A stretch of DNA of 35,692 bases from an uncultured Mycoplasmatota bacterium. Lineage in GTDB: Bacteria > Bacillota_I > Bacilli_A > RF39 > UBA660. The stretch's first letter is position 1; each line of letters opens with the position of its first letter. The notes beneath the pieces are model-generated. The model was given only the letters and a program-made list of their open reading frames with translations, was not told the origin of the DNA and searched no databases. Of the stretch, positions 19,956 through 25,980 are shown piece after piece. Position numbers and translations under genes: made by a program. The stretch is from positions 1 to 35,692 of the forward strand of contig CAOJCV010000003.1 in the NCBI GenBank assembly GCA_948432605.1, given 5' to 3'.

Positions 19956-22900
19956 ATGAATCAAAATTATATTATTGGCTTAGATTTAGGAATTAATAAT
20001 GTAGGCTATGCTGTGGTGGATGAAAACACAAAAACAATTGAAAAGAAAGGGGTTCGTCTTTATAAAGCTTCTGATAAGGCAGAAGATAGACGGGTTGCTC
20101 GCAATACGAGGAGACGAATGAAAAGAAAAACAAATAGAATTCAAGATTCTTTATCATTGTTTAAACATATTGGTTTTCCGAAAGAAAATACAATTGATGA
20201 AAAACTTTTGCAAAAAAGAATAAAAGGTTTAAAAGAAAAATTGGAACCTCAAGATATTGTAAATGTTGTATGTTATTTTATGAGACATCGTGGTTATATT
20301 CCATTTGGAGATGAGGAAAGAGAATTAATTCAATTAAATGGAATGTTTCCATGTGAATATTATAATAAATTGCATCAAGATCTAGGAAAACATAGAGCTT
20401 TAGAACAAGTCGTAAATCATATTGATTTGATTCATGAATTAAAAAATATTTTGTTAACACAGACTATGTATTATCCAGAAATTGGGGATATTATTGGTGA
20501 TTATGAAAAGCAAAATGGTTTGTTATGGATTTTTAGTCGTAAAAGAAAGTTCTGGGAAGGCCCTGGAAGTGAAAAGTCCTTTTCTCCGTTTGGCAGATTT
20601 GTTAACCAAGATGATGTGTTAGAATATCAGCAAATGAAATTAGAGGGAAAAGAAAAATTTCTCTTTGAAGATCTAATTGGACATTGTAAAATCTATCGTG
20701 AAGAAAAATGTGCTCCAAAAGCAAACTTTTTTGCAGAAAAATTTAATTTATTAAATGATTTTATTAATATTCGTATAACTAATATAGAAAATATTAAAAA
20801 AGTAGAGTATATTTCTATAACTAAAGATAAAACTTATAAGTTGACGACTGAAGCGTTGGAAGAATTGGTGAATTATTGTATAAACTATAATGAAAAAACT
20901 TTAACTTATGCTAAAGTTTTGAAAGAAGTTCTTGGTCTTACGAAAAATGATATTACAGGATATCGAGTAAAAAAAGATGGTTCTATAGAATTTAATTTGA
21001 TGAAAACTTATCAGTATGTGGTAAGAGAATTCAAGAAAAATGATTTAGATTCAACATGGCTATTAGAAAATTCTTGGGAAAATTATAATAAGTTAATGAA
21101 TATTCTTGCAGTAGCTCCAGGTATTGTAGAAATTACTCATATGCTTGCTGGAAGTATTCGTGTTTGTTCTGAAAAAGAACAAAGTGTTATTAAAACTATT
21201 CATGACAAATTAAAAAAGGATGGAATGCTCCAATATCATGCTTTAAGTGAAAAAGCGTTGGTAAAGGCGATTCATGATATGCAAAGTACATGCCTAAATT
21301 TTATGCAAGTTTCAAAAAAATTTGATTATGAAAAAGAATCTAGAGAATATTTTGTAAAAAATTATGGTAGTGGCAAAGGTAGACTTTTAATGAGTTCAAA
21401 ATATGTTGATGAGATTATTGCATCTCCTCAAGTTAAGAAAACTTTAAGACAGGCTATTCGCGTGATTAATGCTATTATTAAAGAAAAAGGAAATTATCCA
21501 AGTGTAATTGCTATTGAATCTACAAAAGATATGAATAGTGATGAAAAAAGAAAAGAAATTGAAAAAGAACAATCTATTAATGAAAAAAATAGGAAAGATG
21601 CTAAAGCTTTATTAGAAGGGGTTACTACACCAGATAAAGTTACCGAAAATATGATTCAAAGAGTAATGTTTTATCAAGAAATAAATGGAGTTTGTCCATA
21701 TTGTGGTAAGCCGATTAATATTAATGATGTACTTAATAATACAGTAGAAGTAGAACATATTTTACCAATTAGTCAAAGTGGTGATGATAGTCAAAATAAT
21801 AAAACGTTATCATGTAGATCTTGTAATGCTAACAAGAAAAATAGAACACCTTTTATGTTTTTAAATGAAAAAGAATTTGATGATTTTACTAAAAGAATTA
21901 ATGCTTTAAAAATATCAGCAAGGAAAAGAAATAATTTTTTAACTCAAGAGGATTTAAATAAATATCAAATAAGATTTTTTAATCGAAATTTAAGAGATAC
22001 TTCTTATGCTACAAAAGAACTTGTAAATCAAGTGCATCTTTTTAATGAATATTTAAAAGCCAATACAAAAGATATAGAGATTTTAACTTTGTCTACTCCT
22101 GGTCAATTAACACATAGTATTAGAGAAAATTTGGAAATAAAAAAAGATAGAGATGATGGGGTTTATCATCATGCTGTGGACGCTTCAATTATTGCGGGAA
22201 TCGCTACAACAACTATTGGTAAAAAGATAGTGGAAGCTCAAAATGATCCACAATACTGGGTAACAAAAAAAGAAGAAGCGAAAGAAATTCCAAAGTTGTT
22301 AGAAGATTTTTATTTTATAGATATGAAAGATGAAATTATGAAAATTCAAAGTGATGAGGATATTTTGATATCTATGCAAGTAAACAAGGATGCAAATCGA
22401 AGTATTTCTAATGCAAATATTTATTCTTATATAAAAAAAGGAGAAGATTTTTATAAGATTGAGCAAATATCTGATATTTATTCTATCGATTTAATTCGTC
22501 AAAAAAAAGATTTACTTGATACTTTATTTGATGAAAATAATTCTAAATCAGTGCTGCTTTGTCAAGAACAAAATCCAAAACTTTTTCAATATTTACAAAA
22601 AATTTATTTTAATTTTGCAAAAGAAAAAGAAAATCCATTTTTAAATTATTGTATGGAACAATTGAGTGAGAAAGAAAATTTTGATTATTTAAAACATGGA
22701 ATTAAGACACCATCTAAAAATGGGAATGGTGTGCTCATAAAAAAATTGAGGTATATGAGTAGTGTTAGTGAACCATTTTTACTAGAAAAGAAAAATATTA
22801 AGAAAAAAGATAATACTCTTATAGGTCTTGATAGTGTAAGTATTTATTGTACACGATTATTTTGGGATAAAGATTTAAAAAAAATAATATTTATTCCAGT

Positions 22901-23210
22901 ATATGTTCCAACTGTTGATTTTAAAACAAAAAGAATTAATGAAAATCATCCTTTATATCAAAATTATTTTCAAAAGATGTTGAATGGAAAAAATGTAGAG
23001 TTTATCGTTGATTTATTTAATGGAGATTATGTGGAAATAGAAAAAAGTGATGGAACGATTTTAAAAGAATATATAAAAGGTTACGATAAATCTAGTAAAG
23101 CTATACAATGTAAATCAGGAAAAAGAATTACTTCTAAAGATCGTTTTACACTATATGATGTGGATGTTTTAGGGAATAAGAAAAAGCGTTTGACATGGCC
23201 AAAAGATTAA
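19956..23210 (+). CDS. cas9: Cas9, compact type II CRISPR nuclease
   Basis: 1084 residues from ATG 19956, six bases after AGAGG; an upstream in-frame extension to 19905 is rejected because it lacks a binding site. RuvC-I: IIGLDLGINNVG with catalytic D10. Arg-rich bridge helix: about 41-63 (KAEDRRVARNTRRRMKRK). RuvC-II: SVIAIEST with E521. HNH domain about 570-640: VEHILPIS with H601, DDSQNNKTL with an Asn near 615, and a zinc knuckle from C580/C583 (CPYCG) and C620/C623 (CRSC). RuvC-III: HHAVDASI with H739 and D742. The PAM-interacting region is the last roughly 250 residues. All nuclease residues are present, so it should cut both strands of DNA matching a spacer when loaded with crRNA and tracrRNA. 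Size is close to the small S. aureus-type Cas9. A TATAAT at 19908-19913 may be its promoter. Confidence 0.97.
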   Translation: MNQNYIIGLDLGINNVGYAVVDENTKTIEKKGVRLYKASDKAEDRRVARNTRRRMKRKTNRIQDSLSLFKHIGFPKENTIDEKLLQKRIKGLKEKLEPQDIVNVVCYFMRHRGYIPFGDEERELIQLNGMFPCEYYNKLHQDLGKHRALEQVVNHIDLIHELKNILLTQTMYYPEIGDIIGDYEKQNGLLWIFSRKRKFWEGPGSEKSFSPFGRFVNQDDVLEYQQMKLEGKEKFLFEDLIGHCKIYREEKCAPKANFFAEKFNLLNDFINIRITNIENIKKVEYISITKDKTYKLTTEALEELVNYCINYNEKTLTYAKVLKEVLGLTKNDITGYRVKKDGSIEFNLMKTYQYVVREFKKNDLDSTWLLENSWENYNKLMNILAVAPGIVEITHMLAGSIRVCSEKEQSVIKTIHDKLKKDGMLQYHALSEKALVKAIHDMQSTCLNFMQVSKKFDYEKESREYFVKNYGSGKGRLLMSSKYVDEIIASPQVKKTLRQAIRVINAIIKEKGNYPSVIAIESTKDMNSDEKRKEIEKEQSINEKNRKDAKALLEGVTTPDKVTENMIQRVMFYQEINGVCPYCGKPININDVLNNTVEVEHILPISQSGDDSQNNKTLSCRSCNANKKNRTPFMFLNEKEFDDFTKRINALKISARKRNNFLTQEDLNKYQIRFFNRNLRDTSYATKELVNQVHLFNEYLKANTKDIEILTLSTPGQLTHSIRENLEIKKDRDDGVYHHAVDASIIAGIATTTIGKKIVEAQNDPQYWVTKKEEAKEIPKLLEDFYFIDMKDEIMKIQSDEDILISMQVNKDANRSISNANIYSYIKKGEDFYKIEQISDIYSIDLIRQKKDLLDTLFDENNSKSVLLCQEQNPKLFQYLQKIYFNFAKEKENPFLNYCMEQLSEKENFDYLKHGIKTPSKNGNGVLIKKLRYMSSVSEPFLLEKKNIKKKDNTLIGLDSVSIYCTRLFWDKDLKKIIFIPVYVPTVDFKTKRINENHPLYQNYFQKMLNGKNVEFIVDLFNGDYVEIEKSDGTILKEYIKGYDKSSKAIQCKSGKRITSKDRFTLYDVDVLGNKKKRLTWPKD

Positions 23211-23218
23211 GTTATAAT
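23190..23218 (+). promoter_or_regulatory. Consensus promoter of the tracrRNA
   Basis: TTGACA (23190-23195), a 17-bp spacer and TATAAT (23213-23218): a perfect sigma-A consensus. The -35 lies in the last codons of cas9 and the -10 just after its stop. The predicted start is the G at about 23225. Confidence 0.9.
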
Positions 23219-23224
23219 GTAATT

Positions 23225-23331
23225 GGATCTTGAAAAGAAAAGTTTTCAATTTCTAAAATTACACAGGGTTTCCTATTATAACTATTTATTAGGCAACCAA
23301 AGGAATGCTTATATAAGTATTCCTTTTTTTT
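23225..23331 (+). ncRNA. tracrRNA
   Basis: About 107 nt on the plus strand between cas9 and cas1. Positions 23242-23267 are the anti-repeat: they match the reverse complement of the CRISPR repeat over 26 bases, except CC to TT at two positions, which become G-U pairs in RNA. After a short bulge (GTT), TCCTA (about 271-275) pairs with TAGGA of the repeat 5' end, giving the lower stem. A weak nexus-like element (GG-CAA-CC near 23292) precedes the terminator hairpin. The RNA should pair with pre-crRNA for RNase III processing and Cas9 loading. Orientation agrees with rightward transcription of the array. Confidence 0.9.
23300..23331 (+). terminator. Terminator of tracrRNA, directly before cas1
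   Basis: Eleven-base stem (AGGAATGCTT paired with AAGTATTCCT, one G-U pair) around loop ATAT, followed by eight T. It ends only nine bases before the cas1 ATG, so transcription of cas1-cas2-csn2 from upstream must read through it. Confidence 0.88.
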
Positions 23332-23339
23332 ATAAAAAA

Positions 23340-24233
23340 ATGGCTTTTCGAACAATTTATATAGAAAAAGCTTTAAGAGTTCGATTAGATTTAAACAACA
23401 TTGTTGTGAATTATGAGGATGATAATTATACGATAAATTTAGATGAAATAAATACTATTATTTTTGATGATCCAAGGTGTAGAGTTTCCTTAAGGCTTCT
23501 TGCAACTTTATGTGAGTTGGGGATTAATGTAATCTTTAATGATTCTTCTCATATGCCTATTGGGTCTTTACAAACTTTATATAATCATGCAAGAGCTCCT
23601 AAGAAAATAAAAAATCAAATTATTTGGGATAAAAATTCACAGATTTATTTGTGGACTGAATTAGTAAAACATAAAATTAAAAATCAAATACTTACTTTGA
23701 AAAAAGTAGAAAAAACAGAGAAATTGGAATTATTAAATACAATGATTGATGAGATGATTTTGGGGGATTTAACAAATAAAGAAGGGATTGCAAGTAGGGT
23801 TTATTTTAAAGAATTGTTTGGTAGTACATTTAAAAGATTTGATGAGAATATTATAAATTATGCTTTGAATTATATTTATCAAATTATTCGGTCAAAAATT
23901 GCTCAAGAAATTGTTTCTTGTGGTTATATTCCAGCATTAGGAATATGCCATAAAAGTGAATTTAATTTATATAATCTTGCTGATGATTTTATAGAACCTT
24001 TTCGTCCTATTTGTGATTATTTTGTATATGAAATTTTGACAAATACAATAGAAGATTATTTAACGTCTTTTGTTAAAAGAGATATTGTAAATATATTAAA
24101 TCAATTAGTTTTATTTAAAAATGCTACATATAAAATACATATAGTCATTCAATTTTATGTTCAGTCCTTATTTAAGTATCTAGAAACAGGGGATATATCT
24201 TTTATTCAATATCCTACATTATGCAATATATAA
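23340..24233 (+). CDS. cas1: Cas1 integrase of the type II system
   Basis: 297 residues from ATG 23340. The N-terminus MAFRTIYIEKALRV matches type II Cas1 proteins (MxxRTVVI...). An in-frame TTG at 23223 would add 39 residues, but that stretch is the tracrRNA gene and is not protein-like. Active-site positions by family alignment: E148 (NKEGIASRVYF), H204 (GICHKSEFN) and E219 (DDFIEPFRP). Cas1 with Cas2 inserts new spacers at the leader end of the array. No ribosome binding site is visible; the region before ATG is the terminator T-run plus seven A, so initiation may be weak. The 3' end overlaps cas2 by 13 bases. Confidence 0.95.
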   Translation: MAFRTIYIEKALRVRLDLNNIVVNYEDDNYTINLDEINTIIFDDPRCRVSLRLLATLCELGINVIFNDSSHMPIGSLQTLYNHARAPKKIKNQIIWDKNSQIYLWTELVKHKIKNQILTLKKVEKTEKLELLNTMIDEMILGDLTNKEGIASRVYFKELFGSTFKRFDENIINYALNYIYQIIRSKIAQEIVSCGYIPALGICHKSEFNLYNLADDFIEPFRPICDYFVYEILTNTIEDYLTSFVKRDIVNILNQLVLFKNATYKIHIVIQFYVQSLFKYLETGDISFIQYPTLCNI

Positions 24234-24586
24234 ATTTATATAAACAAATGAGATTATTATTAATATATGATTTACCAATGGTAGATGAAATGGATCGAAA
24301 AATATATTCTAAATTTCATAGAGATATTACAAGATTAGGATTTTATATGCTTCAGTATTCTGTTTATTCTAAAGTTGTTCAAAACGATACTTCGATGAAA
24401 CAATATTTATTTAAAGTAGAAAGGATTACTCCTAAAAAAGGAAATATAGTTTTAATAAAAATTACAGAGAAACAATATCAGGATATGATTTATTTAAGAG
24501 GTGAAAAAAATAAGTTTGATGTTTTAGTTGGTGGAAAAGAATTTGTTGTTTTTGGAGGTGATGAAGATGATGAATTTGTTAATTGA
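24221..24586 (+). CDS. cas2: Cas2 of the type II system
   Basis: 121 residues from ATG 24221, overlapping cas1 by 13 bases, which implies coupled translation (a later start at ATG 24248 is possible). It has the ferredoxin-like Cas2 fold: LLLIYDLPMVD with the conserved Asp after the first strand, FHRDITRLGFYMLQYSVYSK, and PKKGNIVLIKITEKQYQDM, closely resembling type II-A Cas2. It forms the structural centre of the Cas1-Cas2 complex that holds the prespacer. The C-terminus (GGDEDDEFVN) is slightly longer than usual and overlaps the next gene start. Confidence 0.93.
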   Translation: MQYINLYKQMRLLLIYDLPMVDEMDRKIYSKFHRDITRLGFYMLQYSVYSKVVQNDTSMKQYLFKVERITPKKGNIVLIKITEKQYQDMIYLRGEKNKFDVLVGGKEFVVFGGDEDDEFVN

Positions 24587-25457
24587 TAATAAAAAAGAAG
24601 AGTTATTCTTATCTATAAAAAAAGATAATGCTATATTTTTGTTAAACAAAAAAAGTTTATTTGATTTTTATTATTTATTTTATGAAGTTTTAAAAAATAA
24701 AACAAAAGAAGTTCAAATTAAAATAGGTGAAAAGTTTCTTGATTCTAAAAATACTATATTGTTATCTTTGTGTGATTATACTGAAATATTAGAAAGTTTA
24801 TCCTTCAAGAAGGGGAGCTTATTTTATGAATATTTAGTTAGTATAATTAATATGTCAAATTATTTAGACAATGATATTTTATTTTCTGATTTGTCTAATG
24901 TTATTAAAAATCTATTAGAAGAATCTGAAGTTAAATTTCAATATGATATTAATGAGGATTTGGAAAAAATGATATTTAGTTTTGCTGAGTTTTCCTTAAA
25001 ATATAATTACCGTGAGTTATCAAATACTTTGAATGTCATGTTAAAAAGCTTTATGGAAAAAAATGTGAGTAAATTGTTTATTGTATTCTATAATTCAAGT
25101 TTATTAGAATTAAATTTTAAAAATGTAGATAATTGCTATACATTTGATGTATCTGAAGAAAAATCTTTAGAACAATATAATTTGATTTGTGAAAACAACA
25201 TAAAAGAATTAAATTTAGAAAATATAATTCAACGATTAGAAACGGTGTGGCCTGTAGAGTTTGATAAAAAAATAGTAATGCATGATGTGTCAAAGTATTT
25301 TATGATGAAAAAGGTTCATTTGGCTTATGATATTTATTCAGAAAATGAGCTTCTAGTTTGTAAAATATTGGATAAAATGAGAGAAGAAGAAAGTCAAATA
25401 ATTAGTCATAATGTAATAATTCGAGACAATGTTAAATCTTTTTTAGAACACTTTTAA
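24567..25457 (+). CDS. csn2: Divergent Csn2-like adaptation protein with C-terminal extension
   Basis: 296 residues from ATG 24567 (GGAGG at 24554-24558, eight bases upstream; ATG 24561 and 24570 are alternatives). It overlaps cas2 by 20 bases and lies directly before the array, the usual place of csn2 in type II-A. The pattern of the first ~195 residues fits Csn2 loosely: an early helix (FDFYYLFYEVLKN), a long helical middle (about 85-165) and a hydrophobic strand KLFIVFYNS (169-177) like the LLIFINL strand of Csn2. Canonical Csn2 has about 220 residues; here about 100 more follow (LENIIQRLETVWPVEF ... ENELLVCKILDKM). Csn2 rings bind DNA ends and help spacer capture. The call rests mostly on position, so an unrelated adaptation protein is possible. 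Confidence 0.65.
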   Translation: MMNLLIDNKKEELFLSIKKDNAIFLLNKKSLFDFYYLFYEVLKNKTKEVQIKIGEKFLDSKNTILLSLCDYTEILESLSFKKGSLFYEYLVSIINMSNYLDNDILFSDLSNVIKNLLEESEVKFQYDINEDLEKMIFSFAEFSLKYNYRELSNTLNVMLKSFMEKNVSKLFIVFYNSSLLELNFKNVDNCYTFDVSEEKSLEQYNLICENNIKELNLENIIQRLETVWPVEFDKKIVMHDVSKYFMMKKVHLAYDIYSENELLVCKILDKMREEESQIISHNVIIRDNVKSFLEHF

Positions 25458-25482: not shown

Positions 25483-25980
25483 GTTTTAGGATCCTGTGTA
25501 ATTTTAGAGGTTGAAAATCGCCATCTTCCTTGGACTCCAGAAGATTTAGTTTTAGGATCCTGTGTAATTTTAGAGGTTGAAAACCCTTCGCTATCTTCAA
25601 CTTTGAATTTAACGGTTTTAGGATCCTGTGTAATTTTAGAGGTTGAAAACTTACTTACGAAACAGTTGATATGGGTTATGTTTTTAGGATCCTGTATAAT
25701 TTTAGAGGTTGAAAACAAACAGAACGTACAATTGATGTTAATTTAGGTTTTAGGATCCTGTGTAATTTTAGAGGTTGAAAACAGTTGCTGGAAATGAGAA
25801 ATTATCTTTATAGTTTTAGGATCCTGTGTAATTTTAGAGGTTGAAAACCTTTTATATCAATATATGAAGCAACAAACTGTTTTAGGATCCTGTGTAATTT
25901 TAGAGGTTGAAAACTTTCTTACGTTACATGATGTCTGGAGGAAGGTTTTAGGATCCTGTGTAATTTTAGTAATATATTAT
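25483..25980 (+). CRISPR. Type II CRISPR array: 8 repeats, 7 spacers of 30 bp
   Basis: The repeat is 36 bp, starting GTTTTAGGATCCTGTG and ending TTAGAGGTTGAAAAC. Repeats begin at 25483, 25549, 25615, 25681, 25747, 25813, 25879 and 25945; every spacer is exactly 30 bp. Direction is left to right, shown by the GTTTTA start, the plus-strand tracrRNA and the decayed right end. Variants: repeat 1 ends in T instead of C; repeat 4 starts with T and has A for G at position 16; repeat 8 matches for 25 bases (25945-25969) and then diverges, the usual distal-end decay. The spacers look richer in G+C than the surroundings, which is compatible with foreign origin. I found no match to a spacer elsewhere in the window by eye. 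Confidence 0.98.

What the first reader, a model, noticed from the sequence alone, without database searches (positions are those of the whole stretch)
23190..23340. tracrRNA gene between cas9 and cas1 with a perfect promoter inside the cas9 end
The sequence shows TTGACA-17-TATAAT straddling the cas9 stop, a 26-nt anti-repeat with only two wobble pairs to the CRISPR repeat, and an 11-bp terminator, all within 145 bp. In many type II-A loci the tracrRNA lies upstream of cas9. The region would easily be missed because an in-frame TTG at 23223 lets cas1 be called 39 codons too long, over the tracrRNA.
Basis: partly seen in the sequence, partly recalled or inferred. Interest (0 to 1): 0.75.

Follow-up and report, generated by a model that had tools for sequence, protein, structure and literature searches.

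The report
tracrRNA gene between cas9 and cas1
This is the ordinary tracrRNA gene of a short-Cas9 type II-A CRISPR locus in an uncultured Bacilli bacterium, in the cas9-tracrRNA-cas1 order already known for this branch; the one detail I could not find described is a conserved base-paired 5' end on the predicted RNA.

Summary
At 23190-23218 lies the window's only exact TTGACA-17-TATAAT (0.07 expected by chance), with the -35 inside the last codons of cas9 and the cas9 stop in the spacer. At 23242 starts a 26-nt anti-repeat with two G-U pairs (shuffled repeats reach at most 18 pairs). A 12-pair terminator ends at 23326.

Across nine loci with a known repeat, repeat and anti-repeat change together at ten positions. 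In 12 loci the 17-bp spacer is fixed, and the -35 uses the Leu codon TTG every time although TTG is 14% of Leu codons in those cas9 genes. The 39-codon Cas1 extension is not conserved: the frame closes earlier in 11 of 11 relatives. So this is a real tracrRNA gene; no transcript was measured.

The placement is not new. It is published for S. thermophilus CRISPR1, L. rhamnosus and most Mollicutes, and it is the rule in the other Bacilli loci read here.

Not found described: the predicted +1 is followed at once by a stem-loop in 34 of 35 loci (about 5 expected from shuffles). In the window's lineage it folds the leader onto the start of the anti-repeat.

The parts
19956..23210 (+). cas9, 1084 aa, short type II-A form
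   Evidence: TIGR01865 1.6e-145 and PADLOC Cas9; nearest solved chains are 8hud, S. thermophilus CRISPR1 Cas9 and SaCas9
23190..23218 (+). tracrRNA promoter TTGACA-17-TATAAT; -35 within the last cas9 codons, cas9 stop in the spacer
   Evidence: spacing 17 in 12 of 12 related loci, Leu codon TTG in 12 of 12
23225..23254 (+). predicted 5'-terminal hairpin: leader 23225-23241 folds onto the first part of the anti-repeat
   Evidence: start site inferred as 6 nt after the -10, not measured
23242..23267 (+). anti-repeat, 26 nt paired to repeat positions 11-36 with two G-U pairs
23268..23298 (+). lower-stem partner (TCCTA pairs with TAGGA of the repeat, after a two-base bulge) and a small nexus
   Evidence: cofold with the repeat, -55.7 kcal/mol; CAGGGTTTCCTATTATAACT identical in the 12 genome-collection hits, which were found by that pattern
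23299..23332 (+). intrinsic terminator of the tracrRNA, which also lies inside the cas operon
   Evidence: 12-pair stem then T run
23340..24233 (+). cas1, 297 aa, true start ATG 23340 rather than TTG 23223
   Evidence: TIGR03639 aligns from residue 42 of the long ORF; frame closed upstream in 11 of 11 relatives
24221..24586 (+). cas2 (a start at 24248 is possible)
   Evidence: TIGR01573 4.3e-21
24567..25457 (+). fourth gene, probably a divergent Csn2, 296 aa
   Evidence: no family hit; the six best structure matches are all Csn2 chains, best E 0.0067, model pLDDT 60
25483..25967 (+). CRISPR array: seven full 36-nt repeats at 66-nt period and a truncated last repeat

Best explanation
The element is the tracrRNA gene of a type II-A CRISPR-Cas locus of the short-Cas9 branch (that of S. 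thermophilus CRISPR1 and S. aureus Cas9). A strong housekeeping promoter whose -35 is built into the last cas9 codons starts an RNA of about 107 nt near 23225. Its anti-repeat pairs with the repeats of the pre-crRNA, RNase III would cut the duplex, and Cas9 would use the resulting dual RNA as its guide scaffold. The terminator ends the RNA 8 nt before the cas1 ATG and would also reduce read-through from cas9 into cas1-cas2-csn2. Shown by sequence: promoter, anti-repeat, covariation, terminator, conserved location. Inferred: start site, transcript, RNase III cutting, Cas9 loading and the attenuator effect.
For: Only exact promoter in the window. 26-nt duplex against at most 18 for shuffled repeats. 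Ten duplex positions with two-sided compensatory change across nine loci. Twelve independent hits in the genome collection, ten of them titled uncultured Bacilli, all with cas9 upstream and cas1 downstream. Leu codon TTG at the -35 in 12 of 12 loci against 13.8% in the same cas9 genes, and a fixed 17-bp spacer. Full cas operon and array beside it.
Against: No transcript data. The codon count is not corrected for shared descent. L030 keeps only 18 of 26 pairs in an ungapped register. The csn2 assignment rests on a low-confidence model.
Confidence: 0.95

Rival explanations
1. The region is coding: Cas1 starts at TTG 23223 with 39 extra residues, and the anti-repeat is incidental.
For: The frame is open for 39 codons and has a TTG start.
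Against: In 11 of 11 relatives the same frame closes 7 to 34 codons upstream of the ATG and the start is lost or moved. The Cas1 profile begins at residue 42 of the long ORF. The intergenic sequence covaries as RNA.
Confidence: 0.02
2. The 5' leader plus anti-repeat is a natural single guide like tracr-L of S. pyogenes, which directs Cas9 to repress the cas promoter.
For: The leader resembles the 3' end of the repeat and folds onto the anti-repeat.
Against: The predicted start leaves no guide segment before the hairpin. The sequence before it matches the cas9 upstream region no better than shuffles in six of eight loci; the other two share one near-identical sequence and match only a T-rich 10-mer.
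Confidence: 0.04
3. The leader hairpin has no function and comes from shared descent or from the leader being an old copy of repeat sequence.
For: Eight of the 14 lineage-A leaders are close copies, and each hairpin alone is only moderately unusual against shuffles or random genomic leaders.
Against: A stem at the predicted +1 occurs in 34 of 35 loci with unrelated sequences, including lineages where it does not use the anti-repeat.
Confidence: 0.35

Closest known systems
Streptococcus thermophilus CRISPR1 (type II-A, St1Cas9)
   Same: tracrRNA in sense orientation between cas9 and cas1 (PMC3401199); Cas9 among the nearest solved relatives
   Different: RNA and repeat sequences differ; whether its tracrRNA has the same 5' hairpin was not tested
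Mollicutes type II CRISPR loci
   Same: order cas9, tracrRNA, cas1, cas2, array reported as the most common (PMC6882279); SaCas9-like proteins
   Different: Different sequences; a 5' leader hairpin did not appear in the passages read
Lactobacillus rhamnosus GG type II-A (LrCas9)
   Same: 138-bp tracrRNA between Cas9 and Cas1, with Cas2 and Csn2 following (PMC10541446)
   Different: Not compared by sequence here
tracr-L of S. pyogenes
   Same: A longer tracrRNA form whose 5' part takes part in guide function (PMC11417352)
   Different: No guide segment and no match to the cas promoter here

Membership tests
tracrRNA | anti-repeat complementary to the repeat of the same locus | tested here: met
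   26 of 26 nt paired, ten positions covary
tracrRNA | own promoter and Rho-independent terminator | tested here: met
   as sequence only
[quoted passage not shown]
   cofold gives all of these, the nexus small at three pairs
tracrRNA | expressed, cut with crRNA by RNase III, bound by Cas9 | not testable with these tools
   needs RNA and protein work
type II-A CRISPR-Cas | cas9, cas1, cas2 and an array | tested here: met
type II-A CRISPR-Cas | csn2 as fourth gene | tested here: inconclusive
   right place and length; no sequence hit; the six best fold matches are all Csn2 but weak
tracr-L type natural single guide | 5' segment matching the cas promoter next to a PAM | tested here: not met
   longest match 7 nt in the window, as in shuffles

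The most novel reading that the evidence does not exclude
tracrRNA primary transcripts of the short-Cas9 type II-A branch in Bacilli share a functional 5'-terminal stem at +1, of changing sequence. It shields the 5' end from 5'-3' decay and, in the window's lineage, holds the first 10-12 nt of the anti-repeat closed until a crRNA repeat displaces the leader.
Probability: 0.45. Interest if true: 0.5.

Novelty: new member of a known kind. Interest (0 to 1): 0.3.

Why it matters
The gene itself is expected and adds one more usable dual-RNA/Cas9 pair. Two general points follow. Gene callers can place a too-long cas1 over such a tracrRNA, and pipelines that discard anti-repeats inside ORFs, as one metagenome study did (PMC10278012), would then lose it. 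And the conserved 5'-terminal stem suggests that the natural form of these RNAs differs at the 5' end from the trimmed scaffolds used in sgRNA design, which a simple stem-swap test can check.

Tried and rejected
Search by Cas9 protein in genome contigs found nothing, so a conserved 20-nt tracrRNA pattern was used; the same pattern has no hit in viral contigs. A tracr-L reading was tested and dropped. Random genomic leaders placed before the anti-repeat fold as well as the real one in 0.5-6% of trials, and swapping leaders between loci gave a mixed picture, so no single locus proves the hairpin; the case rests on the count over loci. Looking for the fourth gene in Pfam, NCBIfam, PADLOC and PDB sequences gave nothing. 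Paper searches for a described 5' hairpin of tracrRNA found none, but most subscription journals are not held, and the tracrRNA survey I tried to open (PMC3737331) was not available.

Full report
What was claimed and whether it is there. The window belongs to a 1.06-Mb, 77-contig genome of 78.6% completeness; its relatives are titled uncultured Bacilli. The claimed parts are all present. TTGACA-17-TATAAT is at 23190-23218 and is the only exact copy in the window, with 0.07 expected. The cas9 stop is 23208-23210, so the -35 is coding sequence (R-L-T-W codons) and the -10 lies just after the gene. The anti-repeat at 23242-23267 pairs with repeat positions 11-36 without a gap and with two G-U pairs; wobbles extend it to 30 nt, and 30 shuffled repeats reach 13-18. 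The terminator at 23299-23326 has 12 pairs.

Surroundings. cas9 (1084 aa), cas1, cas2, a fourth gene and an array of 36-nt repeats follow in order. By sequence the nearest solved Cas9 chains are 8hud, S. thermophilus CRISPR1 Cas9 and SaCas9, which puts it in the short type II-A branch. The fourth gene has no sequence hit. A low-confidence model (pLDDT 60) has six Csn2 chains as its six best structure matches, the best at E 0.0067. I take it as a divergent Csn2, not proven.

Comparative evidence. A scan of genome contigs with CAGGGTTTCCTAWTATAACT found 12 further loci, all with cas9 upstream and cas1 downstream. Repeats were available for nine loci including the window. Ten positions of the duplex show changes on both sides that keep pairing; own pairs score 25-26 of 26 except L030 (18, in an ungapped register), against a mean of 22 for swapped pairs. 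The promoter spacing is 17 in 12 of 12. The -35 is TTGACA in 11 and TTGACT in one. The Leu codon TTG is used in 12 of 12 although it is 13.8% of Leu codons in these cas9 genes. This is selection on DNA inside coding sequence, with the caveat that the loci share descent.

Cas1 start. The 39-codon extension from TTG 23223 is open only in the window. In the 11 relatives the frame closes 7 to 34 codons before the ATG. The Cas1 profile starts at residue 42 of the long ORF.

Is the place unusual? No. It is reported for S. thermophilus CRISPR1 (PMC3401199), L. rhamnosus GG (PMC10541446), L. brevis (PMC9204096) and as the commonest order in Mollicutes (PMC6882279). In a sample of Bacilli outside the family, 17 of 18 loci with cas1 in reach have a sense-strand promoter in or near the end of cas9 and a tracrRNA-like element before cas1. 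The layout is the rule for this branch.

The predicted +1 (6 nt after the -10) is followed at once by a stem-loop. In the window's lineage the leader GGATCTTGAAAAG folds onto the first part of the anti-repeat. Such a terminal stem is present in 21 of 21 loci of the family, from two Cas9 lineages about 30% identical, with 2.0 expected from shuffles and 18 of 560 for stretches after any TATAAT. In 14 loci from other families it is present in 13, with 3.1 expected and 46 of 490 in a control; that test accepted five pairs where the first asked for six. The stems have unrelated sequences (for instance GUGAAC/GUUCAC, GUGAUU/AAUCAC, GUAGUC/GACUAC, GUAGUG/CACUAC). Per locus the signal is modest, and the loci are not independent. 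My reading is protection of the 5' end from 5'-3' decay plus temporary closure of part of the anti-repeat; both are inference. The tracr-L alternative fails, since no guide-like match to the cas9 upstream region exceeds shuffles except a T-rich 10-mer in two near-identical loci.

Verdict. New member of a known kind. The 5'-terminal stem deserves a test; I could not find it described, but the library searched lacks most subscription papers.

Noticed in passing
23225-23254; also L030-L034, L036-L039, L029, L026, L047, L049, L016-L021, L042, L064-L082: A stem-loop starts at the predicted +1 of the tracrRNA in 34 of 35 loci tested; in the window's lineage its 3' arm is the start of the anti-repeat.
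   Followed up: yes
23299-23345: cas1 has no Shine-Dalgarno-like motif within about 20 nt of its ATG, here or in 11 relatives, and starts just after the tracrRNA terminator; how cas1 is translated and how much read-through it gets is open.
   Followed up: partly
24567-25457: Fourth cas gene has no hit in Pfam, NCBIfam, PADLOC or PDB sequences; a weak model resembles Csn2, so the family models miss this Csn2 branch.
   Followed up: partly
L009:2820-3449 (G000 contig 53): A second array of ten identical repeats, on the minus strand at 66-nt period, with no cas gene in the 6 kb read; neighbours look like NusA, RimP and a tRNA methyltransferase. It would depend on this tracrRNA.
   Followed up: partly
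25681-25716 and 25945-25969: One internal repeat carries two changes and the last repeat is truncated after 25 nt.
   Followed up: no
L015/L024 (G022:C37): In one relative cas9 is split into two reading frames at about residue 600.
   Followed up: no
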